Origin: Frankia nepalensis
GTDB taxonomy: Bacteria > Actinomycetota > Actinomycetes > Frankiales > Frankiaceae
Length of the DNA stretch: 64,000 nucleotides
Assembly: GCF_016786325.1 (NCBI RefSeq)
Contig: NZ_JADWYU010000199.1
Span: forward strand, 1-64,000
Direction of reading: 5' to 3'
Part shown: piece by piece, positions 42,752 to 63,880 of the stretch
Layout: every line of letters begins with the position of its first letter
Position numbering within the stretch: position 1 is the first letter of the stretch
The notes under the pieces: model-generated
Databases searched by the model: none
What the model was told of the DNA's origin: nothing
What the model saw: only the letters and a program-made list of their open reading frames with translations
Program-made: the position numbers and the translations under genes

Positions 42752-43918
42752 TCAGCCGCCCGTTGCCTGGTCGGTCTGGGCCTCTCCGCCGCCGAACAGC
42801 AGCCCGATCTTCGCCGCGAGGTAGTCGCCCGCCGTCCATCCCGGGGTGCCCGCGCGAGCCGACGCGCACTGGCCCACGACCGGAGCGCGGTGGTCGGGGA
42901 ACTGGAAGTAGCTGAGGCTGGTCCGCGCCGGCTGCCGGCCGGGACCGGCCGGCGCGACCACGCGGTGCCAGGTGCTGTTCCACCGGTCGCCACTGGTGGC
43001 CGCGAGCAGGTCGCCCACGTTGACGACGAATCCGCCGGCTGGCACGTCGACCGGTAGCCAGGCGCCGTTCCGGAAGATCTCCAGACCGGGCTGGCCGTCG
43101 ACCGCGACCAGTGTCAGAAATCCATAGTCCGTATGCGGACCTGCTCGCCAGACGCCCGGTTTCACCGGTCCTTCGAACGATGGGTAGTGATTTACCCGCA
43201 GCCCGCCGAGCGGTCTCCGGAAGATCTCGTCGAACGCGGTCGGATCGTCGCGCAGGGCGGCTCCGCACACCCGCAGCAGCTGCCGGCCCAGCTGGTCGAC
43301 GGCGGCCCGGAACGGCTCGAGCGCCGCCCGGAACCACCACAGGTCCTGATCCGGCCACACGTCGGCGGCCGACCATCTGTCCGTGTTCGCGGGTCCGCCG
43401 TGCGGGGCCAGGCAGTAGGTCTCGGAGAGATCCGGAACGCGGGCGCCGCCCGCCGCGGCCGGGCCGCGGCCCGCGCCCGGCCCGGTCGACGCCGCCCTGG
43501 CGGCGGTCGCTGCCGGTCCGCTGGCGGCGTGCGTCGTTCCGGCGGCGCCCGGCGTTGACCTGGGCGTGACGGCCGTCGCGGCGGCCTGACTCTCGCCGCC
43601 GAGCCGGACGTAGCCGCGGCGAAGGGTCGGGTGGGCGCGCGCCCGGCTGCGCTCCTTGACCTCCTGTGGCAGCTCGAAGAACCGCGCCGAGGCGGTGATG
43701 GCGGCGGCTGTCGACGCCGCCGGAACCGTGTGGTCGACGACACAGAAGAATCCCGCGTCGCGGCAGGCGTCGTCGACCGCCGTGACGATGGAGCGGAACG
43801 CGGAACTCGACTCCCTGGTTATTCCACGCAGTGACAGTGTGGGTGCGGCGAGTCCTTTCCGCGCGGTCGGCGCGGAACTCTCCCGATCGGTCCGGCGCGG
43901 CCGGTCGATGTCTCCCAC
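42752..43918 (-). CDS. isopenicillin-N-synthase-like Fe(II)/2-oxoglutarate oxygenase (first copy)
   Basis: Protein of 388 aa. The iron ligands are visible in HTDYGFLTLV (H and D) and STWHRVV (distal H), and the 2-oxoglutarate-binding Arg in PARTSLSYF. NHYP and VNVGDLLAATSG are further family marks. Between the N-terminal domain and PDLSETYC there is an Ala/Thr-rich insert of about 55 residues. GTG at 43918 is the given start. It ends the minus-strand oxygenase/ABC module; a paralogue with a similar insert begins the module at 54347-55462. Confidence 0.88.
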   Translation of the reverse strand: MGDIDRPRRTDRESSAPTARKGLAAPTLSLRGITRESSSAFRSIVTAVDDACRDAGFFCVVDHTVPAASTAAAITASARFFELPQEVKERSRARAHPTLRRGYVRLGGESQAAATAVTPRSTPGAAGTTHAASGPAATAARAASTGPGAGRGPAAAGGARVPDLSETYCLAPHGGPANTDRWSAADVWPDQDLWWFRAALEPFRAAVDQLGRQLLRVCGAALRDDPTAFDEIFRRPLGGLRVNHYPSFEGPVKPGVWRAGPHTDYGFLTLVAVDGQPGLEIFRNGAWLPVDVPAGGFVVNVGDLLAATSGDRWNSTWHRVVAPAGPGRQPARTSLSYFQFPDHRAPVVGQCASARAGTPGWTAGDYLAAKIGLLFGGGEAQTDQATGG

Positions 43919-53355: not shown

Positions 53356-54350
53356 GATGACTCCTCCAGGTCTGCGTCGGTGGCGCCGGCACGGGTGGCG
53401 GCGGGGCCGTCGGCCTCGGCGGCCTCGGTGGCCGCGGCGCCCGGCGCCGTGGTGAGCAGGGCGCGGGTCAGCCTGTCCTCCAGCTCGTGGAAGGCAGGGT
53501 CGGTCAGCAGCTCCAGGCCACGGGGGCGGTCGAAGGGCACGGTGACGACGTCGACGACCCGGGCCGGCCGGGCGCTCATCACCACGACCCGGTCGGACAG
53601 CAGCACGGCCTCGTCGACCGCGTGCGTGACCATCAGGGTGGTGATCCGTCGCTGTGCCCAGATCCGCTGCAGCTCGAGGTTGAGCCGGCGGCGGGTGACG
53701 GCGTCCAGCGCGCCGAAGGGCTCGTCCAGCAACAGGACGTCGGGCCGCAGGACCAGCGAACGCGCGATCGACACCCGCTGGCGCATCCCGCCGGACAGCT
53801 CGCGCGGGCGCAGCCCGGCCGAGGCCGTCAGGCCGACCAGCTCGATCAGCTCGTCGACGAGGTCCCGGTCGACCCGCCGGCCGACGGCCCGGAACGGCAG
53901 CGCGATGTTGCCGCGCACATCCAGCCAGGGCAGCAGCGCGTGGTCCTGGAAGGCGATCCCCAGCCGGTGCTCGGACACCACCTCGGCCGGTGGGCGGCCG
54001 AGCACCCGGACCTCGCCGCCGGTGGGCGCCTCGAGGCCCGCGACCATCCGCAGCGCCGTCGACTTCCCGCATCCGGACGGGCCGAGCAGGGAGACGAACT
54101 CGCCGCCGCCGACCTCGAAGCTGACCTGGTCGAGTGCCCGCAGGGCACCTCGGCGGCCGGCGTCGAAGGTCTTGGAGACGGCGGCGAACCCGATACCGGG
54201 GCCGGTAGGGGAGCGGGGCGCGGGTACGGCGGGTTTCCCGGCGGTGAACGTCCCGGCGGTGGCCGACACGGCCGGGGCCGTGCCGCCGGCCGCGGCGGTC
54301 CCAGCCGGGGCGGCCGCGCTGGTGGCGGCCGTGCTCGGGGCGGCGGTCAT
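53352..54350 (-). CDS. nitrate/sulfonate/taurine-type ABC transporter ATPase
   Basis: Protein of 332 aa. After a 55-residue Ala/Pro/Thr leader come Walker A GPSGCGKST, Q-loop FQDHALLPWL, signature LSGGMRQRVSIARS, Walker B LLLDEPFGALD and switch THAVDEA, the standard SsuB/TauB order. ATG at 54350 overlaps the oxygenase stop (ATGA). It drives the fused permease. Confidence 0.93.
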   Translation of the reverse strand: MTAAPSTAATSAAAPAGTAAAGGTAPAVSATAGTFTAGKPAVPAPRSPTGPGIGFAAVSKTFDAGRRGALRALDQVSFEVGGGEFVSLLGPSGCGKSTALRMVAGLEAPTGGEVRVLGRPPAEVVSEHRLGIAFQDHALLPWLDVRGNIALPFRAVGRRVDRDLVDELIELVGLTASAGLRPRELSGGMRQRVSIARSLVLRPDVLLLDEPFGALDAVTRRRLNLELQRIWAQRRITTLMVTHAVDEAVLLSDRVVVMSARPARVVDVVTVPFDRPRGLELLTDPAFHELEDRLTRALLTTAPGAAATEAAEADGPAATRAGATDADLEESS

Positions 54351-55462
54351 GCAGTCACCTCGTTGCGGTGGCGCACGGTCGTGGCGCGTGGCGCGACCCG
54401 GCCGAGCTGGGCGAGTTTCGTCGTCAGATAGGCGCCGGCGGTGATCGAGACCGGTCGGCCGGCCGGATCGACACCGTCGATCACGGCGTCGTGGTTCGGG
54501 AACTGGAAGTGGGCGATGCTGGTCCGGGCCGGGTAGGGCGGCCGGCCGGGCGGCACCGCGACCCGGTGCCAGGCCGACCGCCACCGCGCGCCGCTCAGCA
54601 CGGCCAGCAGGTCGCCCACGTTGACGACCAGGCCGTCGGGCGGGCAGGTGACCGGGACCCAGGCCTCGCCGACCCGGACCTCCAGCCCGGGGTGGCCGTC
54701 GACGGCGAGGACGGTCAGCGTCCCGTAGTCGGTGTGCGCGCCACCGCGCCGCTGACCGGCCTCGGGGGGCGCGGCGAGCGCCGGGTAGTGGTTCGCCCGG
54801 GTGGTACCGATCGGGCGGGTCACCAGGGCGTCGAAGGCGCGCGGGTCGTCACGCAGGGCCAGCGCGGCGACCTGGAGCAGCCGGTGCGCGAAGGCCTCCA
54901 TGGCCCGCCGGTAGGCGATCCAGGTCCGCTGGAAGCCGGGGAGGTGGGGCGGCCAGACGTTGCCGGCCGTGAACGGCCCCGCGTCGACGGGCGGCTCCGG
55001 CCCGATCGCGAACGTCTCGGAGAGGTCGGGCCGATCCGCCGCCGGATCCGCTGGCGCGGCCCGCCCGGCGGCCGTGGCCGGATCGGCTGGCCCGGAGCCG
55101 CTGGCAGGGTTTGTCGGGGGCGCGGCGGCGAGTGCCTGGGCCTCGGCGCCCAGGCCGTAGTAGCCGCGCTGCACACCGGGCGGACACTGAAGGCGCAGAC
55201 CGTCCTTGGTGACGCCGTCGGACCTGAAGAGATCGTTCGCGGCGGCGAGCGCGGCGGCGGTCAGCGACCGGTCGACGCCGTGACCGACAGCGACGAAGAA
55301 CCCGGTCGCCGTGCACGCGGCGTCGACCCGCGCGGCCACGTCCGCCAACGCAGCGGCATTACCTCTTTCAATATCGCTGACATCGATCACCGCCAGACCC
55401 TGGCTGCTCGGCTCTCGCGCTCCCGCTCCCACGGGCAAAATATTGATGGGATCTATTTTCAT
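54347..55462 (-). CDS. isopenicillin-N-synthase-like Fe(II)/2-oxoglutarate oxygenase (second copy)
   Basis: Protein of 371 aa. HTDYGTLTVL (H, D), SAWHRVAVP (distal H) and PARTSIAHFQFPNH (Arg) give the active site; NHYP and VNVGDLLAVLSG match the copy at 42752-43918. An Ala/Pro-rich stretch sits just before PDLSETF, as in that copy. ATG at 55462 lies on an AT-rich palindrome; GTG codons about 10 and 23 residues later are alternatives. It is the first gene of the minus-strand module. Confidence 0.88.
   Translation of the reverse strand: MKIDPINILPVGAGAREPSSQGLAVIDVSDIERGNAAALADVAARVDAACTATGFFVAVGHGVDRSLTAAALAAANDLFRSDGVTKDGLRLQCPPGVQRGYYGLGAEAQALAAAPPTNPASGSGPADPATAAGRAAPADPAADRPDLSETFAIGPEPPVDAGPFTAGNVWPPHLPGFQRTWIAYRRAMEAFAHRLLQVAALALRDDPRAFDALVTRPIGTTRANHYPALAAPPEAGQRRGGAHTDYGTLTVLAVDGHPGLEVRVGEAWVPVTCPPDGLVVNVGDLLAVLSGARWRSAWHRVAVPPGRPPYPARTSIAHFQFPNHDAVIDGVDPAGRPVSITAGAYLTTKLAQLGRVAPRATTVRHRNEVTA
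55442..55456. promoter_or_regulatory. near-palindrome ATTGAT-GGG-ATCTAT at the module head
   Basis: It falls within the first codons of the annotated oxygenase, in an AT-rich patch. It shares arms and spacing with the perfect site at 47882-47896. If it is an operator, the true oxygenase start may lie downstream. Confidence 0.4.
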
Positions 55463-55829
55463 CGAGATGACTGCTCCGTTACGGTCCCGCGTCGACCGCC
55501 CGGCCGACCCGGCCGACCCGGCCGGCCTGACGCCAACGAAGTAGCGACATCACCCACGGTGACCACTGGGGGAGCGCCCCGGCCCGCGCGCCGGAGCGCG
55601 GCGGGTCGCGCCGCCGCTCGCCGAGACGCCTCGGCCGTGCCGGCGTTGCCGGACCTGTCGGATACTGTCTGTCAGCGGGGGCGGGCCGATCCGGCGTCAC
55701 GGGGGCGGCGTGCGGTGATGGACCTTCCCTGTGTGGACACGGTCGGAAGCCCGGGAGTTCTCCCTGGATGACGACGGCGAAATAGCTGGATGTTTGTGTC
55801 AGACCTGTTCGGGCCGCGAAGGGAACGTG
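55463..55829. other. divergent intergenic region between the oxygenase module and the SMC operon
   Basis: About 370 bp separating a minus-strand and a plus-strand operon, so both promoters should be here. A plus-strand frame is open from 55731 (GTG) into the first SMC gene but lacks a ribosome site. No clear operator is seen. Confidence 0.5.
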
Positions 55830-57425
55830 ATGGCGGAGGGGTGGGCGCCTTCCGGTGAGCCCGCCGACTGGGGCATCGCGATCCCGACGGATGACGTATC
55901 GATTGCCCGGCGGCGGCGCGCCCTGGCGCCGATACAGGTGCTTACCGACATCGAACGGACCAAGTCGAGCCTGGACGGGGACTTCTGGCATCGCTACGAC
56001 CTGTTCAACATCGCGCTTGCCGTCATCGACCAGGTCGCGCTCGCGATGGGAATCTCGGCCGGTCGTACCTGGGACGAGACCGTGGACTATGCCGGCGGGC
56101 AGGCCGCCCGCCAGGTGCCCGACGCCGCGCCCACGCAGTGGCGGGCGGTCGCGGAACGGGTGGTCGTCTCCCTCGTGACGACCGACGTCGAGACCGTCCC
56201 CTATCTCGTGCACAGTGACGAAGGCCCGAAATGGCTCGCGCAGCGATTCCGGCTGCTCTATGCGCACGCGAGCCCGGATGGCGGGGAGCACCTGCGCGCG
56301 TCGGAACAGGCCATCAACATCTTCATCGACGCGCTCGACCTGGAGATCGAGGCGGCGCAGGTCGCCAATGAGGCACAGTTGCGCGCCCTCATCGCGCGGG
56401 GCGCGATCGAGTCCGCCGTCGCGATCGCGCGCCATGCCCGTTACCGGTCCATCCAGCTGCAGGAGAAGGTCCGCCGGATCGTCGCGGACACGCTGATCGA
56501 CCCCGACACCCATGACTGGGTCGACGACGTCCCCGCGGTCCTCGACACGGCGCTGACCCATGTGGCGGAACGCCTCGCCGCGGAGACGGAACTGCTCGAC
56601 GCGGTCGCCGATCGGCGCGGGGACCTGACCGACTCCGTCCGGCTCGCCTCCGCCAACCAGCTCGTGGAGATCCTCCGCGAGTGCCGACATCGGCACAACG
56701 AGCTGCACGGGCATCTGATCGGGGCCCGCGGCCGGCTCCGCGACGCCCTCGACGACCGGTTCGGCCGCCCGGTGGGCGCCGCGCACCTGGCCAACATCGG
56801 CTCGGACCTGCTGGATCCGTACCTGCTGCGCCCCACCGGGCAGGCGGCGGCCGTAGCGCCCCGGCTGCTGGCGGCCGTGGGCGGGATCGCGGCGCGCTGG
56901 TGGCCGTCGCTGGCGACGCTCGTCGACGAGCTCTGCGCGCCGCCACGCCAGCCCGGGCAGGGCGAGGAGGTGGAGGAGCCCGAGTTCGCCGACTCCACCG
57001 AGCGGGCCTGGTGGGAGCCCTACGAGGACACCGTCGCGGCGATGCTCGACGCGCTGGAGGAGCCGATCCGGCTGTCCCAGCTGCTCGCCCGGGTCGAGGA
57101 GACCGCGGCCGGGGCCCAGGACGACGACGGCGAGCCGCTCGACCCGTCGGCGCTGGCCGCCGCGGTCGTGCACGCGGCGCACCGGGCGTGGACGACCCGC
57201 CTGGCCGGGCGCACGAGCGGCGAGCGGGTCGTGGTCGGCGTCGACACGGGCGCCGCGCTCGACACGGGCCAGGTCCGCTCGGCCGACCTGCTGCTCGTCC
57301 CGGCGACGGTGACGGCGGACATCGACGCCGCCGCGCCGACCCGGCCCGCGGCGCGCGACGTGCCCTGGCAGCGGGACGACGCGTCCCACGAACCCGGCGA
57401 CCTCGAACCGGAGCTGGCTGGATGA
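55830..57425 (+). CDS. jetA: JetA-like (MukF-type kleisin) subunit of a Wadjet-like SMC system
   Basis: Protein of 531 aa, almost all helical. An N-terminal winged-helix-like segment (DLFNIALAVIDQVALAMG, about residues 62-79) is followed by long helices and an acidic middle (EEVEEPEF), with a predicted C-terminal winged region. ATG at 55830 follows GAAGGGAAC. Sequence identity to MukF is not obvious by eye; the call rests on its size, first place in the operon and the clear JetC and JetD downstream. The stop overlaps the next start (ATGA). Confidence 0.7.
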   Translation: MAEGWAPSGEPADWGIAIPTDDVSIARRRRALAPIQVLTDIERTKSSLDGDFWHRYDLFNIALAVIDQVALAMGISAGRTWDETVDYAGGQAARQVPDAAPTQWRAVAERVVVSLVTTDVETVPYLVHSDEGPKWLAQRFRLLYAHASPDGGEHLRASEQAINIFIDALDLEIEAAQVANEAQLRALIARGAIESAVAIARHARYRSIQLQEKVRRIVADTLIDPDTHDWVDDVPAVLDTALTHVAERLAAETELLDAVADRRGDLTDSVRLASANQLVEILRECRHRHNELHGHLIGARGRLRDALDDRFGRPVGAAHLANIGSDLLDPYLLRPTGQAAAVAPRLLAAVGGIAARWWPSLATLVDELCAPPRQPGQGEEVEEPEFADSTERAWWEPYEDTVAAMLDALEEPIRLSQLLARVEETAAGAQDDDGEPLDPSALAAAVVHAAHRAWTTRLAGRTSGERVVVGVDTGAALDTGQVRSADLLLVPATVTADIDAAAPTRPAARDVPWQRDDASHEPGDLEPELAG

Positions 57426-58222
57426 CCCTCGCAGGCGACGCCCTCGACCTCGGCCGGCTGCTCGCGTGGGCCGCGCGCCCCCGGGAGACCCCCGCCCGGC
57501 ACGACGACTACCACCAGGTGGTCACTCGCTACCTCCAGGACCCTGACTTCGCGAGCGCGGCCGACGCGATGTTCACCGGCGCCGGCCTGCGGGTGGTCGT
57601 CACCGCGACGGACGGGGTGATCGTCACCGCCGAGGCGACGTCGTCGCTGCGCCTCACCGCCGGCGACGTCATGAAGCGGGCACAGCCCCAGCACCGGGCG
57701 GTCGTCGGGGCGGTGGTGCTCGCGGTCGCCCGCACCGCCTATCCCGAGCCGTCGATGCTCAACGACCCCGACCGGGTCGCGGTCTTCACGGCGCAGACGG
57801 TCGTCGATACCCTCGACCGGGCCGCGCAGGCCCACGAGGAGCGCAGCGAGCGCGACGGTGACCTCGACGACGACAGCGTCGAGATGTGGCGCCGGTGGCA
57901 GGCGATCGCGCCCGCCCGCCCGAACGCGCGCCGCAAGTCCGTGAGCGACCGCCAGGGCGTGGTCGCGCGGGTGTGCCGGATCCTCGCGGACGCGGGCTAC
58001 CTGACCGCCCGCGGCGAGACCGACGGCGGTACCTGGATGAGCCGGCCGCGCTTTCGCTACGCGGTGGCCGAGCTGTGCGCGGACTCGGAGCTGTACGCGC
58101 TGGTGAACGGGATCGCCGAGCACCCGCCGGACGAGCCGGGCACCGGCCGGCCGGGCGGCGAGGGCGAGACCGACGGCGGCAACGACAGCGGGACCGACCG
58201 CGACCATGACGGGCAGGGGTAG
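57422..58222 (+). CDS. jetB: JetB-like (MukE-type) subunit
   Basis: Protein of 266 aa. Several winged-helix elements are likely: YHQVVTRYLQDPDFASAADAMF near the start and SDRQGVVARVCRILADAGYL (about residues 178-197) with a following strand, typical of MukE/DUF4194-like proteins. The last 30 residues are acidic and Gly-rich. It starts inside the JetA stop (ATGA) and ends 3 bp before JetC. MukE-type proteins bind the kleisin and DNA. Confidence 0.7.
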   Translation: MTLAGDALDLGRLLAWAARPRETPARHDDYHQVVTRYLQDPDFASAADAMFTGAGLRVVVTATDGVIVTAEATSSLRLTAGDVMKRAQPQHRAVVGAVVLAVARTAYPEPSMLNDPDRVAVFTAQTVVDTLDRAAQAHEERSERDGDLDDDSVEMWRRWQAIAPARPNARRKSVSDRQGVVARVCRILADAGYLTARGETDGGTWMSRPRFRYAVAELCADSELYALVNGIAEHPPDEPGTGRPGGEGETDGGNDSGTDRDHDGQG

Positions 58223-58225
58223 CCG

Positions 58226-61200
58226 ATGAGTTCCGCCCGCGGGCTCCAGACCGGTCTCGCGTGGGACGAGCCGGCGGCGCCGAGTAGCCCGGAGGCGCTG
58301 CCGACCCCGCCGCTGCGGCTGCGCCGCGTCCACCTGCGCGGCGTCGGCCCGGACGGCGCCCGGTTCGACCCACTGGACCTCGACTTCACCGCGCGCGACG
58401 GGGCGGCCTCGCGGGTCCTGCTCTCGCTGACGAACACCGGCGGCAAGTCGACGCTGATCACCCTGGTGTCCAGTCTCGTCGTGCCGGCGGCGCGCGCCCA
58501 GGTCGGCGGCAAGAACCTCGGCGACTACGTGCTGACCGGGGACACGTCGCATGTGGTCTGCGAGTGGGAGGACGCGGCCAGCCGGACCCGGACGGTGACC
58601 GGGACGGTGATGGAGTGGAAGGACGGCCGCCGCCAGCCCGGCCATCGGCAGCGGTCGACGACGAACATGCGCCGCGCCTGGTACCTGTTCCGGACCGGGC
58701 CGGGCGACTACGGCGTCGACGACCTGCCGTTCGTGTCCGAGGGCCGGCGGACGACGTTCGAGGCGTTCGTCGGCCAGGTGTCGAGCGCCCTGTCCGCCCG
58801 GCCGCGCTCCCAGTGGGCGATGACGCAGACCCAGCAGGAATGGACCGAGACGCTGGAGCGGCTCACCAGCATCGACCCGGTGCTGTTCGGCTACCAGATG
58901 CGGATGAACGACTCGGAGGCCGGCGCCGAGAAACTGCTCGCGACGTTCGACTCGCCGGACAACGTCGTCCGCTTCTTCATCGCCGCCCTCAACGACGACC
59001 GCGAGCTGGCCGACTTCACCGCGAAGCTCGGGCCCTATGCCGCGCTCGCCGTCGCGCGGCCCGGGCTCGCGGCGCTGGCCGAGTTCGGCGCCCAGGTCGG
59101 CGCGCGGCTGGAAGCCGTCAGCGCGCGGGCGCGCATCGCGGACGACGCCGGCGGGCAGACGGTGCGGGCGCGGCTCGGGGGCGGGGAGCACGCGGCGGCG
59201 CTCGACAACCGGGTCAGCCGCGACCAGACGTCGCTGCGGGATCTGGAGCAGGCGGCGCAGGCCGCGGCGCTGGCCTTCCAGACTGCGCGCCGCGAGTACG
59301 GCCAGATCAGCGACATCCGGCTCCAGCTGCTGCTCGAGGACGCGCGGGCGCGCCTCACCGCGGCCGAGGCGGCCGTCGGGCGCGCCACGGCGGACGCGCG
59401 CGCCACCGCCGCCGAGTCGGCGGCCTGGGAGGCGGTCGACCTCGTCCTCGACATCGACCGGGCGCGGACCGACCGCGACGCGGCCCGGGCGGCCTACGAG
59501 GCCGCCGACGCCGGGCTGGAGCCGCTGCGGGCCAGGGCGCGAACAGCCAGGGCCGCGCTGGCGGGACGCCTGCAGGCGCTCGCGGACGAGGCGGAGGCCG
59601 TCGCCGCCGTCGCCAGCGACGAGGCGGCGACCGCCGAGCGGGCCGCCGACGAGGCCGTGGACCGGCGCTCCCAGGCCGACGGCCGGGCGCATGACGCCCG
59701 GCGGGAACTGGAGTCGATCGACGCCGCCGTCGCCGCGGCGGACGCGGCGGCCCACGCCGCCGTCACGGCCGGCTGGCTGCTCGACGGGGAACGCCCAGAG
59801 CCGTGCCAGCACCGCTGGGCGCTGGCCGCCACGGCCGCCGACGACGAGGCGGACGCGCACGGCACGGCGGCCGACGAGGCGGACGAGGCCCACCAGGCCG
59901 CGGTGCGCGCGCTCGACCTGCTCGACGGCCAGCTCACCGGGCTGCGGGCCGCCGCGGGCGACGACGAGCGCGCGCGCCGGGCGTTCGACGACGACGTCAC
60001 GGCCCTCGCCGGCCACGAGACTCTCCGGTCGCGGCTTCCGGACGGGCCCCGCGACGCCGCGGAGGTGGGGCGCGCCGCGGACGCGGCCGACGAGGAGGCC
60101 CGCGAGGCCGACCGCCGCGCCGCCGAGCACGAGCAGGTGGCGAAGATCGCGGCGGACGAGCTCAACCACCTCGACGGGACGGGCACGGCGCCCGGCGCCG
60201 CGGACGCGCTCGCGGTGCTCGCGGTCCTGGTCGACGCCCGGCTCGGCGCGGTCACCGGCCTGGAGTGGATCGAGCACAACGTCGTCGACGCGGCGGCGCG
60301 GCCGGCGTTCATCGGCGCGCGTCCCGAGCTCGCCGGCGGCGTCGTCGTCACCGACCCGGCCCGCTTCGACGCCGCCGTCGCCGTGCTCACCGACGCCGAG
60401 CTCATGACGCGGTCGCCGGTCGCGCTCGTCACCCCGCCACCGGCGCCACGGCCGGCCGAGGCGGCCGGCCCGGCCGAGCCTTCCGAGCCTTCCGGGCCGG
60501 CCGGGCGCGACGGGGCGCGGCGGCACGTTGTCCTGCCGCATCGGGCTACCTGGGACCGGGCCTGGGCGGCCACCCGGCGTGACGAGCTCGACGCCGCCCG
60601 GTCCGCGGCGGCCGCCGTCGCCGCGGCGGCCCGCGCGGCCGCCCTGGCGCACCGCCGTGCCTCGGCGGCCTGCGCGCAGTTCGTCGCCCGCTGGCCAGGA
60701 GCGAGCCGGGACGAGCTGGTGCGGCGCTCACGCGCGTCCGCCGACCAGGTCGCCGCCGCGGAACGCCGCCAGGAGACGCTGCGCGCGCAGCGGGACAGCG
60801 CGCGTGCCCAGGTCGCCACCGCGCGGCGGGAGCGGGATCTGGCGCTCGCGCGCTCCGCCGGCGCGCGGACGAACGAACAGGCCGCGCGCGGGCTCACGCC
60901 GGTGGTCGCGGCGGCGGAGCGGGCCGCGGACCGCCGGGCCGGCGTCGAGCGGGACCGCCAGCGCGCCCTGCGCGACGCCGAGGAGGCCCGGGAGGCCGAG
61001 TCGAGCGCCCGCGCCCGGGCCAGGGCAGCCCACGGGCGCGCCGCGCGGACGCTGGCGAACCGGGAGCCGTGGCTGCGGGAACGCGACGAGCTCGGCGTCG
61101 ACGTCGCCGGGCCGGACCCCGGAGGCAGCCTCGACGTCGCGCGCCAGGCGTGGACCTCGGTGCGCGCCGAGCTGGCCAGCGCTGAGCAGGGCATGGTCGA

Positions 61201-62779
61201 GGCCGAGACGCTCGCCCGGGCCGAACGCGTTCTCGGCGACCTGCGCGGCCGGCTGCCGCGCTACCCGCAAGCGGCGGTCGAGCGGGCCCGGGTGCTGGCG
61301 GGGACGATCGAGGCCTCGTCGGCGCAGCTGCGGACGGGCGCCCAGCGGCAGGCCCGGGAGGACGCCGCCGCCGCGGAGGCCGGCCGGATCCATGCCGAGG
61401 CGGAGCGGCGGGCGGCCGACGCCGCGGAGCGGTCGGCACGGCCTGCCGACCGGCCCAACCACGTCGACCTGGCGAACATCCCCGAGTGGCGACCCGCCTC
61501 TCCCGGTGAGATCCCCGCGGTCCTGGAACGGCTGGAGGCCCGCAACGCCGAGCTGCTCGCCCGGCGCGACGAGGCGGAGCGGGCTGAGACCGAAGCCCGC
61601 CAGCTGCACGAGCTCGTCGCCCAGGACGTGATCGCGCTGTCGGACACCTCCGGGATGTGGACCGCGGACAAGCCGCCGACCGACTCCGTCTTCGACGGGA
61701 CCAAGGAGGCCGCCCGCACCCGGATGCGAGAGCTGATCACCGCCCTGAACCAGGCGGAGAAGGCCGAGCGAGCGGCCCGCGACGCGCTGCGCGACGCGGT
61801 CGCCGACGCCCGCGCGGTCGCGACGGACCCGCGCTGGCGCGAGCTCGACGCGCCCATCGCCGTGCGGCTGCGCTCGCTGCGGGAACCCGACCTGGTGGCG
61901 GAGGCGGCGCTGCTCGCCCGCCGGATCGACGCGATGACCCGGTCCGCGCGCGCCGACCTCGACCAGATGGACACCCACCGGGAGCTGATCCGCGACGGGC
62001 TGGTCTCGCTGTGCCGCGACCAGCGGCGCCTGCTCAAGGAGGTGTCGCGGACCTCCAGGCTTCCCGGCGGGCTCGGCGATCTCTCCCACCGGCCCGCGGT
62101 GAAGATCGTGTTCGAGGAGGCGCCGGAGGACGCCGCCGTCGCGCGGCTCGCCGCGCGGATCGACGCGTGGGCGGTCGAGCTCGCCGCGAACCCGAAACGC
62201 GCGTCGTCGTCGGAGGCGCGGACCCGCTGGCTCGCGGATGCCGTCCGCGACACGGTCGTGGACCGGCCGCGGGCCGGCGCGTGGACCGTGGAGATCCTCA
62301 AGCCGCGCATCGACGGCAAGGTGATGTACTGCCCGCCGGACCGGATCCCGCACGAGTTCTCCGGCGGGCAGGTCCTGACCCTCGCGGTGCTCGTCTACTG
62401 CGCGCTGTCCGGAGTCCGGTCGGCCCACCGCGCGGGTGGCGCCCGGCCACCGGGAACGCTGATCCTCGACAACCCGTTCGGCGCGGCCTCGGCCGAGGCG
62501 CTGATCGCGATGCAGCACCGGCTGGCGGCGCACACCGGCCTGCAGCTGGTGTGCGCGACCGGGCTCAACGACGCCGGCGTCGACGCCGCGTTCACCGGTG
62601 AGGGATCGGTCATCGTCAAGCTTCGCAACGACGGCGACCTGCGGCGCAACCTGTCGTTCCTGCGGCTGCGCGCGGCCGTCGTCGACGGTGTCGACGTCAC
62701 CGCCGCCCTCACGTCGGGACGCGACCCTGACTCGCAGCGGAACTGGGTCGACGCGAGCGCCTACCGGATCGGCGAGTGA
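58226..62779 (+). CDS. jetC: JetC-like MukB/SMC ATPase
   Basis: Protein of 1517 aa. The N-terminal head has LLSLTNTGGKSTLI (GGKST about residues 72-76). Very long Ala/Arg/Glu coiled coils fill about 290-1300, with a likely hinge region near 680-790. The C-terminal head has HEFSGGQVLTLAV (1376-1388) and Walker B TLILDNPFG, where Asp is about 1415 and Asn 1416 replaces the usual Glu. SMC motors of this kind extrude DNA loops. ATG at 58226, no overlap. It is the largest gene of the window and the centre of the four-gene operon. Confidence 0.85.
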   Translation: MSSARGLQTGLAWDEPAAPSSPEALPTPPLRLRRVHLRGVGPDGARFDPLDLDFTARDGAASRVLLSLTNTGGKSTLITLVSSLVVPAARAQVGGKNLGDYVLTGDTSHVVCEWEDAASRTRTVTGTVMEWKDGRRQPGHRQRSTTNMRRAWYLFRTGPGDYGVDDLPFVSEGRRTTFEAFVGQVSSALSARPRSQWAMTQTQQEWTETLERLTSIDPVLFGYQMRMNDSEAGAEKLLATFDSPDNVVRFFIAALNDDRELADFTAKLGPYAALAVARPGLAALAEFGAQVGARLEAVSARARIADDAGGQTVRARLGGGEHAAALDNRVSRDQTSLRDLEQAAQAAALAFQTARREYGQISDIRLQLLLEDARARLTAAEAAVGRATADARATAAESAAWEAVDLVLDIDRARTDRDAARAAYEAADAGLEPLRARARTARAALAGRLQALADEAEAVAAVASDEAATAERAADEAVDRRSQADGRAHDARRELESIDAAVAAADAAAHAAVTAGWLLDGERPEPCQHRWALAATAADDEADAHGTAADEADEAHQAAVRALDLLDGQLTGLRAAAGDDERARRAFDDDVTALAGHETLRSRLPDGPRDAAEVGRAADAADEEAREADRRAAEHEQVAKIAADELNHLDGTGTAPGAADALAVLAVLVDARLGAVTGLEWIEHNVVDAAARPAFIGARPELAGGVVVTDPARFDAAVAVLTDAELMTRSPVALVTPPPAPRPAEAAGPAEPSEPSGPAGRDGARRHVVLPHRATWDRAWAATRRDELDAARSAAAAVAAAARAAALAHRRASAACAQFVARWPGASRDELVRRSRASADQVAAAERRQETLRAQRDSARAQVATARRERDLALARSAGARTNEQAARGLTPVVAAAERAADRRAGVERDRQRALRDAEEAREAESSARARARAAHGRAARTLANREPWLRERDELGVDVAGPDPGGSLDVARQAWTSVRAELASAEQGMVEAETLARAERVLGDLRGRLPRYPQAAVERARVLAGTIEASSAQLRTGAQRQAREDAAAAEAGRIHAEAERRAADAAERSARPADRPNHVDLANIPEWRPASPGEIPAVLERLEARNAELLARRDEAERAETEARQLHELVAQDVIALSDTSGMWTADKPPTDSVFDGTKEAARTRMRELITALNQAEKAERAARDALRDAVADARAVATDPRWRELDAPIAVRLRSLREPDLVAEAALLARRIDAMTRSARADLDQMDTHRELIRDGLVSLCRDQRRLLKEVSRTSRLPGGLGDLSHRPAVKIVFEEAPEDAAVARLAARIDAWAVELAANPKRASSSEARTRWLADAVRDTVVDRPRAGAWTVEILKPRIDGKVMYCPPDRIPHEFSGGQVLTLAVLVYCALSGVRSAHRAGGARPPGTLILDNPFGAASAEALIAMQHRLAAHTGLQLVCATGLNDAGVDAAFTGEGSVIVKLRNDGDLRRNLSFLRLRAAVVDGVDVTAALTSGRDPDSQRNWVDASAYRIGE

Positions 62780-62785
62780 GCCCCG

Positions 62786-63829
62786 GTGCTCGTCCGCCAG
62801 ACCGAGGTCGACGCGTTGCGCGCGGCGCTCGTCGGCCGCGGCCAGGTCCGGGTGGCACTCGACGTGCTGTGGCCGCTGTGGGCGGCGGCCGCGCCGCGCC
62901 TGGTCGGGACCGTCCACCAGGCCGAAGGGCTGCTCACCGCGCTGAAGGCCCTCGAGGGGGCCGGCGTGCTCACGCTGCCGGTTGGGGCGTGGGACGCCTC
63001 CACCGTGCCGGCGCTGCCGAGATCCGTCAGCGTTCCGAGCGCGCGGCGGGCGGCCCGGGAGCGGCCCTGGACGCGGTTCCCGTGGTGTGCGCGGATGGGC
63101 TGGGCCGCGTCGCTGGCCACCCTGTCCGACGCCCAGTTCCGCGACCTCGTCGCCGTCAACGACTGGCTGGTCCGCGCCGCGGGTGCGCCGGGGCGTGTAC
63201 CCGTGCGGTACCGGTCGGTCGAGCTGTTCGGCGACGAGAAGCGGCTGGAGGCGCTGGCCAGGACCGGGCTGTTTGGGCAGGGGCGACTCAGCCTGGACCT
63301 GCTGGGCTGCGCGCGGATCCCGGCGCCGCTGCCGGCGGCGCCGGTCGGGGCGGGGCCGGACCTTTTGGTCGTGGAGAACAGTGACACCTACTGGGTCGCG
63401 GCCGAGATGCTCGCCGGTTTCGGCGGCCATCCGGTCGGGGCGGTCGCCTGGGGATCGGGGGCGACCTTCCCGTCCCAGGTCACCGCGCTCGCGGTCGACG
63501 TCGCCGGGCGCGGCCCGGTACGCGGCGTCGTCTGGTACTGGGGCGACCTTGACCCGGCTGGCCTGATGATCGCCGTGGGCGCCGCCACCGCTGGCGCCGC
63601 CGAGGGCATCCCCGTCCGCCCGGCCGCGGGCCTCTGGGCCGCGATGGTCGACCGCCCGCTCCAGGACCCCGGGACCGTCACCTGGCCCGTCGGCCTGGGC
63701 CGCGACTGGCTGGGGCCCGAGCTGTGGGACCGTCTCGGTGCCATCCGGGACGGTCAGGGCCGGATCGCGCAGGAGTCCGTTCCGCCGGCGGCGCTCGCCA
63801 GTTGGGCCGCGGATCTCGCGGCGGCCTGA
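62786..63829 (+). CDS. jetD: JetD-like Toprim nuclease subunit
   Basis: Protein of 347 aa. The Toprim elements are visible: LLVVENSDTY (Glu about 197) and WYWGDLDPAGL (Asp 254 and Asp 256), the DxD pair. The C-terminal domain matches the DUF2220 part of Wadjet JetD, which cuts DNA held by the JetABC loop extruder; the N-terminal part should be the arm that binds JetA/C. GTG at 62786 lies 6 bp after JetC. In known systems this subunit makes the complex destroy small circular plasmids. Confidence 0.85.
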   Translation: MLVRQTEVDALRAALVGRGQVRVALDVLWPLWAAAAPRLVGTVHQAEGLLTALKALEGAGVLTLPVGAWDASTVPALPRSVSVPSARRAARERPWTRFPWCARMGWAASLATLSDAQFRDLVAVNDWLVRAAGAPGRVPVRYRSVELFGDEKRLEALARTGLFGQGRLSLDLLGCARIPAPLPAAPVGAGPDLLVVENSDTYWVAAEMLAGFGGHPVGAVAWGSGATFPSQVTALAVDVAGRGPVRGVVWYWGDLDPAGLMIAVGAATAGAAEGIPVRPAAGLWAAMVDRPLQDPGTVTWPVGLGRDWLGPELWDRLGAIRDGQGRIAQESVPPAALASWAADLAAA

Positions 63830-63853
63830 GATAGGCCGGTCGGGCACCGCCGC

Positions 63854-63880
63854 CCCAGCGAGGGCGACCGCTGGGTTTTC
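63854..63880 (+). terminator. rho-independent terminator after the SMC operon
   Basis: CCCAGCG (63854-63860) and CGCTGGG (63869-63875) form a perfect 7-bp stem with an 8-base loop, followed by TTTTC. It lies 24 bp after the JetD stop and is the clearest terminator in the window. The remaining 120 bp to the window end hold no gene I can support. Confidence 0.8.

What the first reader, a model, noticed from the sequence alone, without database searches (positions are those of the whole stretch)
55830..63829. Four-gene SMC operon of the Wadjet (JetABCD) plan, possibly a divergent subtype
Seen: four tightly packed plus-strand genes (ATGA overlap, then 3 and 6 bp gaps) coding a 531-aa helical protein, a 266-aa winged-helix-like protein, a 1517-aa SMC/MukB-type ATPase and a Toprim protein with E197, D254 and D256, closed by a terminator. 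Known: Wadjet systems use a MukBEF-like loop extruder plus the JetD Toprim nuclease to destroy plasmids. Inferred: this is such a system. The JetA and JetB parts are weakly conserved by eye and JetC is large, so it may fall outside the described subtypes.
Basis: partly seen in the sequence, partly recalled or inferred. Interest (0 to 1): 0.78.

Follow-up and report, generated by a model that had tools for sequence, protein, structure and literature searches.

The report
Type III Wadjet plasmid-defence operon
A soil actinobacterium carries a complete four-gene Wadjet type III operon, a known kind of system thought to destroy incoming plasmids; its motor protein, like the other type III motors examined here, lacks the acidic residue that motors of this kind normally use to split ATP.

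Summary
The four genes are real, at the stated coordinates and spacing, and end in a terminator-like hairpin. They form a JetABCD operon of the already described Wadjet type III. PADLOC models name JetA3 (2e-91), JetC3 (6e-134) and JetD3 (9e-84); JetB matches no model directly but is related to the gene before jetC in other type III operons. JetC at 1517 aa is near the type III norm (matched profiles 1451-1486 positions). A JetD3 profile finds only MksG and JetD in the PDB, weakly; the predicted JetD fold ranks the same two first. So "Wadjet" holds and "outside the described subtypes" does not, although the window belongs to a deep actinobacterial branch of type III. Against a congener, homology covers just 55829-63849, in another context. 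The least expected result is family-wide: in 36 of 36 distinct type III JetC rows that cover the site, the Walker B catalytic Glu is Asn (DNP) and the D-loop Asp is Ser/Asn/Thr, whereas four type II JetC and the solved one keep an acidic residue (Glu, once Asp) and the D-loop Asp. How type III powers plasmid destruction is an open, testable question. Most likely role: restriction of circular plasmids, inferred from homology, not shown here.

The parts
55830..57425 (+). jetA: JetA3-type protein (kleisin role by analogy), 531 aa
   Evidence: PADLOC PDLC00567 JetA3 E=2e-91 over residues 21-503
57422..58222 (+). jetB: JetB-position protein (KITE role by analogy), 266 aa
   Evidence: no PADLOC hit itself; phmmer matches E 1e-18 to 1e-26 to the ORF just before jetC in other type III loci, and far stronger to its four close relatives; three JetB3 models match 3, 1 and 1 members of its 18-row alignment, weakly (best 7e-5)
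58226..62779 (+). jetC: type III SMC/MukB-like ATPase, 1517 aa
   Evidence: PADLOC PDLC00588 JetC3 E=6.1e-134 over 32-1483 of 1517
58427..58453 (+). JetC Walker A region LTNTGGKST (residues 68-76)
   Evidence: N70, G73 and K74 invariant in 13 of 13 JetC rows
62360..62371 (+). JetC signature motif SGGQ (residues 1379-1382)
   Evidence: S1379, G1380 and G1381 invariant 13 of 13
62465..62491 (+). JetC Walker B and D-loop LDNPFGAAS (residues 1414-1422): Asn1416 at the place of the catalytic Glu, Ser at the place of the D-loop Asp
   Evidence: DNP in 36 of 36 distinct type III rows that cover it; type II contrast
62786..63829 (+). jetD: Toprim nuclease of the JetD3 family, 347 aa, GTG start
   Evidence: PADLOC PDLC00594 JetD3 E=8.7e-84; only MksG and JetD found in the PDB by profile, E 0.027 and 0.21
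63374..63376 (+). JetD catalytic Glu197
   Evidence: Aligned with residue 248 of E. coli JetD (E248A in entry 8q72) and with a Glu of MksG 8b7f whose spacing to the aligned Asp (43) equals that of the published E236 and D279
63545..63553 (+). JetD D254-x-D256 metal-binding motif
   Evidence: Invariant in 17 of 17 JetD rows
63854..63875 (+). terminator-like hairpin followed by TTTTCTT
   Evidence: 3 such sites in the scanned stretch against 0.7 expected; this one starts 25 bases after the jetD stop
55829..63849 (+). operon as a transferable unit
   Evidence: blastn homology to a congener's copy (split over two contigs) covers 55829-59723 (83%) and 59784-63849 (77%) and stops at the operon ends

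Best explanation
A complete Wadjet type III anti-plasmid operon. By analogy with types I and II, JetC dimers with JetA (kleisin) and JetB (KITE) form an SMC motor that binds DNA without sequence specificity and reels in a circular molecule. When a small circle is fully extruded, the JetD Toprim nuclease is engaged and cuts it, so incoming plasmids are lost. Shown here: the four genes, family membership of three of them, JetD active-site residues, the JetD fold (partial model), and the operon standing as a unit in different contexts. Inferred: complex assembly, extrusion, cleavage and the protective effect. Unexplained: how ATP is hydrolysed with Asn in place of the usual Walker B glutamate.
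For: PADLOC JetA3, JetC3 and JetD3. JetB shares sequence with JetB-position proteins of other type III loci. The same four-gene order occurs in Polaromonas, Rhodococcus and three Streptomyces plasmid records; a Microvirga plasmid record has JetA, JetC and JetD homologues in that order, its JetB not identified. The JetD3 profile finds only MksG and JetD among 177,635 PDB sequences up to E 10, with E197 at the catalytic Glu. The JetD model (mean pLDDT 73) has as best fold matches C. glutamicum MksG (Z 14.0, 2.9 A, 146 aligned) and P. aeruginosa JetD (Z 11.7, 3.5 A, 148 aligned). A JetD of this close kind is found in 2 of 58 genomes searched, own included, and the operon sits in different contexts, as expected of defence genes. 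Passages of PMC12647877 say that Wadjet cleavage is sequence non-specific, by extrusion followed by JetD activation, and that type II nvJET cleaves naked circular DNA; they also say that Wadjet-III lacks a hinge channel and, a few cases excepted, tends to have longer coiled coils.
Against: JetB matches no PADLOC, Pfam or NCBIfam model above cut-off, and its predicted structure is unusable (pLDDT 44), so the KITE role is by position and sequence kinship only. JetC lacks the catalytic Glu and the D-loop Asp, which argues against a conventional ATP cycle. The PDB profile matches of JetD are weak (E 0.027 and 0.21), and over the whole chain Foldseek TM-scores are low (0.30-0.33); the good match is the Toprim half only. 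No function was tested. The neighbouring genes that Pfam named (6 of 9 ORFs given) are metabolic or transport genes, not defence genes.
Confidence: 0.85

Rival explanations
1. A divergent fourth Wadjet subtype, outside types I-III.
For: The window clade (4 sequences) sits on a long internal branch (2.87 changes per column, 94/99 support) in the JetC head tree. JetB escapes all models. JetC scores 446 bits with PDLC00588 where another member scores 1709.
Against: Three of four proteins match type III models at 1e-84 to 1e-134 with near full coverage, and match type I or II models weakly (JetD1 7e-7) or not at all. Walker B DNP and the JetA-B-C-D order are shared with other type III. The tree uses only 141 columns and warns of long-branch joins.
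Confidence: 0.1
2. A chromosome-organising MksBEF-like SMC complex, with JetD a secondary or non-defensive nuclease.
For: A related type III JetABC lineage, mostly without JetD, is widespread in the same bacterial family, and MukBEF, which lacks the nuclease, folds the E. coli chromosome (PMC7617805, passages).
Against: The window operon has an adjacent jetD with intact active-site residues. It is patchily present (JetD of this close kind in 2 of 58 genomes searched, own included; any JetD match to it in 6 of 58) and stands as a unit in different contexts, unlike a housekeeping complex.
Confidence: 0.1
3. A decayed, non-functional operon.
For: Loss of the catalytic Glu could be read as decay.
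Against: All four frames are intact, and the DNP motif is conserved in 36 of 36 type III JetC rows that cover it, from Actinomycetota and Pseudomonadota, so it is a family trait and not damage.
Confidence: 0.03

Closest known systems
Wadjet type III (PADLOC JetA3/JetB3/JetC3/JetD3)
   Same: Gene order, JetA3, JetC3 and JetD3 profile matches, JetC length, DNP Walker B
   Different: Deep actinobacterial branch; JetB below model detection; Walker A reads NTGGKS in the window clade where most others read NGGGKS
Wadjet type II (N. vireti nvJET, PDB 9qe0; own-genome copy on contig C340)
   Same: SMC motor of similar length (1371 aa in 9qe0, 1411-codon open frame in C340)
   Different: Type II JetC keeps the acidic Walker B residue and the D-loop Asp (LDEAFAGVD in both)
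Wadjet type I / MksBEFG (C. glutamicum, P. aeruginosa, E. coli GF4-3)
   Same: JetD/MksG Toprim nuclease with aligned catalytic Glu and DxD, same Toprim fold
   Different: JetC is shorter (JetC1 profile 1093 positions) and MksB uses a catalytic Glu (E1042Q is impaired; PMC10123090 passages)
Lamassu LmuB
   Same: A defence SMC-like ATPase whose Walker B Glu is generally replaced (Glu to Gln; PMC10586767 passage)
   Different: A different family and substitution; E=0.13 match only
Topoisomerase VI A subunit / Spo11
   Same: Toprim fold (Z 10.4 and 8.0)
   Different: TopoVI-A ranks below MksG and JetD in fold (by 3.6 and 1.3 Z), and is not found by the sequence profile

Membership tests
Wadjet type III | Four co-directional adjacent genes in the order jetA-jetB-jetC-jetD | tested here: met
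   same order in L058, L059, L061-L063
Wadjet type III | JetA of the JetA3 family | tested here: met
   PDLC00567 E=2e-91
Wadjet type III | JetB of the JetB3 family | tested here: inconclusive
   No direct model match; homology to JetB-position ORFs of type III loci; three JetB3 models match 3, 1 and 1 of the 18 members of its alignment, weakly
Wadjet type III | JetC of the JetC3 family | tested here: met
   PDLC00588 E=6.1e-134, PDLC00579 4.2e-129, PDLC00589 1.7e-75; no JetC1 or JetC2 match listed at E up to 1
Wadjet type III | JetD of the JetD3 family with Toprim catalytic residues | tested here: met
   PDLC00594 E=8.7e-84; E197, D254, D256
Wadjet type III | Reduces plasmid transformation or cleaves circular DNA | not testable with these tools
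   Needs a bench assay
Wadjet type I or II | JetC1/JetC2 profile match, acidic residue after the Walker B Asp, D-loop Asp | tested here: not met
   No JetC1/JetC2 hit for P0003; window motif LDNPFGAAS against LDEAFAGVD in type II
Canonical SMC ATPase | Catalytic glutamate after the Walker B aspartate | tested here: not met
   Asn1416; Asn in 36 of 36 distinct type III rows that cover the site
Topoisomerase rather than JetD | Closest sequence and fold match is a topoisomerase | tested here: not met
   JetD/MksG are the only PDB sequence matches and rank above TopoVI-A in fold
OLD nuclease | Closest fold match is an OLD Toprim | tested here: inconclusive
   None among the 50 rows shown, which does not exclude it

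The most novel reading that the evidence does not exclude
Type III Wadjets are SMC machines that work without conventional Walker B glutamate catalysis and without the D-loop aspartate. They would be either slow, ATP-locked DNA clamps that sense small circles by entrapment instead of processive loop extrusion, or motors with a relocated catalytic base (E113 and E231 of JetC, invariant in the 13 rows, are candidates).
Probability: 0.25. Interest if true: 0.75.

Novelty: new member of a known kind. Interest (0 to 1): 0.42.

Why it matters
The operon itself is one more type III Wadjet, on a deep actinobacterial branch that profile libraries detect only in part. The loss of the catalytic glutamate and D-loop aspartate in every type III JetC sampled matters more. 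Current models of Wadjet action rest on types I and II and need ATP hydrolysis for loop extrusion. If type III hydrolyses ATP differently, or hardly at all, it tests whether processive extrusion is needed to recognise small circular DNA. The genome also holds a type II JetC locus and a second type III JetABC locus without adjacent jetD, so plasmid restriction by Wadjet may bear on how hard such bacteria are to transform (the difficulty is recalled, not from a call).

Tried and rejected
Pfam and NCBIfam gave nothing above cut-off for any of the four proteins; the best was JetD_C at 17.4 bits against a cut-off of 22. JetC as a single sequence found no relative in the PDB up to E 0.1, JetD only a chance match at E 0.66, and the JetC C-terminal profile only chance matches. 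The JetB structure prediction from 5 rows failed (pLDDT 44) and was not searched. No related loci were found in viral contigs. No tRNA lies in the window or in the 8 kb of contig after it as an insertion site. OLD nucleases do not appear in the rows shown, which proves nothing. One row of the first JetB alignment (L060) was in the wrong frame and was dropped in A6. Genome G010, with a single weak JetC3 match (1e-4), was left out of the JetD census; in that census only about 100 first-look candidates per genome were scored. No Bacillota JetC3 was sampled; plasmid searches returned none, so the DNP count covers Actinomycetota and Pseudomonadota only, and many of its rows are close kin. The rows were gathered by a profile built from type III heads that read DNP; a head with Glu at that one place would still score, but far relatives could be missed. 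Two of the 38 distinct rows do not reach the motif and are not counted. The type II contrast is not perfectly uniform: one of four type II JetC (L076) reads LDDAFAKVD, Asp in place of Glu. The type I contrast rests on one weak match (L065, E 2.8e-4) plus the published MksB E1042Q.
Full report
Observation. The four plus-strand genes exist as described: jetA 55830-57425, jetB 57422-58222, jetC 58226-62779 and jetD 62786-63829, with a 4-base overlap and gaps of 3 and 6 bases. Third-position GC is 0.92-0.96. A terminator-like hairpin follows at 63854-63875. The window is contig C286 of a draft 10.7 Mb genome in 398 contigs. The genome-collection scan with JetC returned five loci: two contigs of Pseudofrankia sp. 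BMG5.36, and one each of Paractinoplanes pyxinae, a Mycobacterium MAG and Amycolatopsis nivea.

Identity. PADLOC names JetA3 (2e-91), JetC3 (6.1e-134) and JetD3 (8.7e-84); JetB matches nothing. The JetC3 profiles that match the window's JetC or three other type III JetC proteins are 1451-1486 positions long, so 1517 aa is ordinary. JetB is related to the ORF immediately before jetC in other type III loci (E 1e-18 to 1e-26, and stronger to its four close relatives). Three JetB3 models match 3, 1 and 1 members of its 18-row alignment, the best at 7e-5. Its structure prediction failed, so its KITE role is by analogy.

JetD. In a 17-row type III alignment D254 and D256 are invariant, and E197 is Glu in 14 rows; L038-L040 lack it. 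The profile searched against 177,635 PDB sequences returns only C. glutamicum MksG (8b7f, E 0.027) and E. coli JetD E248A (8q72, E 0.21). E197 falls on residue 248 of JetD and on a Glu of MksG; that Glu and the Asp under D254 lie 43 residues apart, as do the published metal ligands E236 and D279. These E-values are weak on their own, but they were the only two matches up to E 10. The AlphaFold2 model has mean pLDDT 73, with residues 87-113 and 122-179 poor. P. aeruginosa JetD and MksG are its only Foldseek matches below 0.001, with low whole-chain TM-scores (0.30, 0.33). VIA-align, over the Toprim half, gives MksG Z 14.0 (2.9 A, 146 aligned), JetD Z 11.7 (3.5 A, 148) and TopoVI-A Z 10.4 (3.8 A, 161), the last 1.3 below JetD.

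JetC motor motifs. In 13 type III JetC proteins aligned over their length, the Walker A N70, G73 and K74, the signature SGG and the residues D1415-N1416-P1417 are invariant. Over all fetched loci, 38 distinct rows match the C-terminal head profile. Two do not reach the site; 36 of 36 that cover it read DNP, and the D-loop position is Ser 23, Asn 12, Thr 1, never Asp. Many rows are close kin. The set includes members of reference type III clusters: Polaromonas with PDLC00578 at 2163 bits and E. coli with PDLC00587 at 3367 bits; a family relative scores 1709 bits with PDLC00588. By contrast, type II JetC of the same genome reads LDEAFAGVD, as does the solved N. vireti type II JetC (9qe0), whose complex cleaves circular DNA (PMC12647877 passages). 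Two other type II copies read DE and one reads DD. A weak type I match reads FLDEALIKAD. In C. glutamicum MksB the residue is E1042, and E1042Q impairs ATPase activity (PMC10123090 passages). So the Glu-to-Asn change marks the type III sequences sampled, in Actinomycetota and Pseudomonadota; Bacillota were not sampled.

Is this in print? Passages of PMC10586767 note that LmuB generally has Glu-to-Gln, and say that most research so far was on type I and that type II/III remain to be characterised. PMC12647877 (passages) says that Wadjet-III lacks a hinge channel and, a few cases excepted, tends to longer coiled coils. Searches for type III Wadjet, Walker B, catalytic glutamate and DUF3584 listed no paper that, by title and abstract, treats the type III ATPase site. 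Most subscription papers are not held, including the original Wadjet paper, so I cannot claim that it is unpublished.

Mobility and relatives. Against congener G006 the left flank matches, in order, up to 55521 and no listed match lies beyond. Against congener G005, whose copy is split over two contigs, homology covers 55829-59723 (83%) and 59784-63849 (77%) and nothing outside on those contigs. A JetD of this close kind occurs in 2 of 58 genomes, the window's own included, and any match to it in 6 of 58. The Paractinoplanes copy lies beside two tyrosine integrase genes, with a serine recombinase-type gene upstream. In the JetC head tree the window, G005, Paractinoplanes and Amycolatopsis form one group (94/99) on a long branch; the tree has only 141 columns and warns of long-branch joins.

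Mechanism. Shown: genes, family of JetA, JetC and JetD, JetD active-site residues and Toprim fold, the operon as a unit in different contexts. From published work on other Wadjet systems: a JetABC dimer extrudes DNA and JetD is activated once extrusion is complete (PMC12647877 passages). Inferred: that this operon does the same. Open: how ATP drives it without the usual Glu. I hold ordinary Wadjet function at 0.85 and a non-conventional ATP mechanism in type III at 0.25.

Verdict. The motor change shared by the type III JetC sampled is what deserves a second look.

Noticed in passing
G000 contigs C23 (L074) and C216 (L075); L079, L080: A related type III JetABC lineage, mostly without JetD, is widespread in the same family. 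In 16 of 21 JetC3-bearing genomes searched no JetD3-profile match was found anywhere (about 100 candidates scored per genome), including single-contig genomes G012, G029 and G051, the last of another family; type I/II JetD were not sought. One JetD-bearing row, L008, falls inside it in the tree. In L079 it lies near lycopene cyclase and thiamine phosphate synthase genes. It may be a nuclease-free, housekeeping SMC complex.
   Followed up: partly
G000:C340:43713-47690 (L072): The same genome also carries a type II JetC (PDLC00553, 1282 bits), so with the window and the C23/C216 pieces it seems to hold three Wadjet-group loci.
   Followed up: partly
L038, L039, L040 (JetD rows of alignment A2): Three type III JetD proteins lack the catalytic Glu of the VVEN motif and have Ser there, with a Glu three residues on.
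   Followed up: no
L108 (Salmonella plasmid pRM11065-2): The type III jetC is annotated as two overlapping CDS, so this copy may be broken; not examined further.
   Followed up: no
window 42797-43858 and 54347-55462: Two related 2OG-Fe(II) oxygenase genes (45% identity), the second beside an ABC transporter ATPase gene, perhaps a small uptake or tailoring cluster unrelated to the finding.
   Followed up: no
L076 (genome G096), type II JetC: Walker B reads LDDAFAKVD, with Asp at the place of the catalytic Glu.
   Followed up: no
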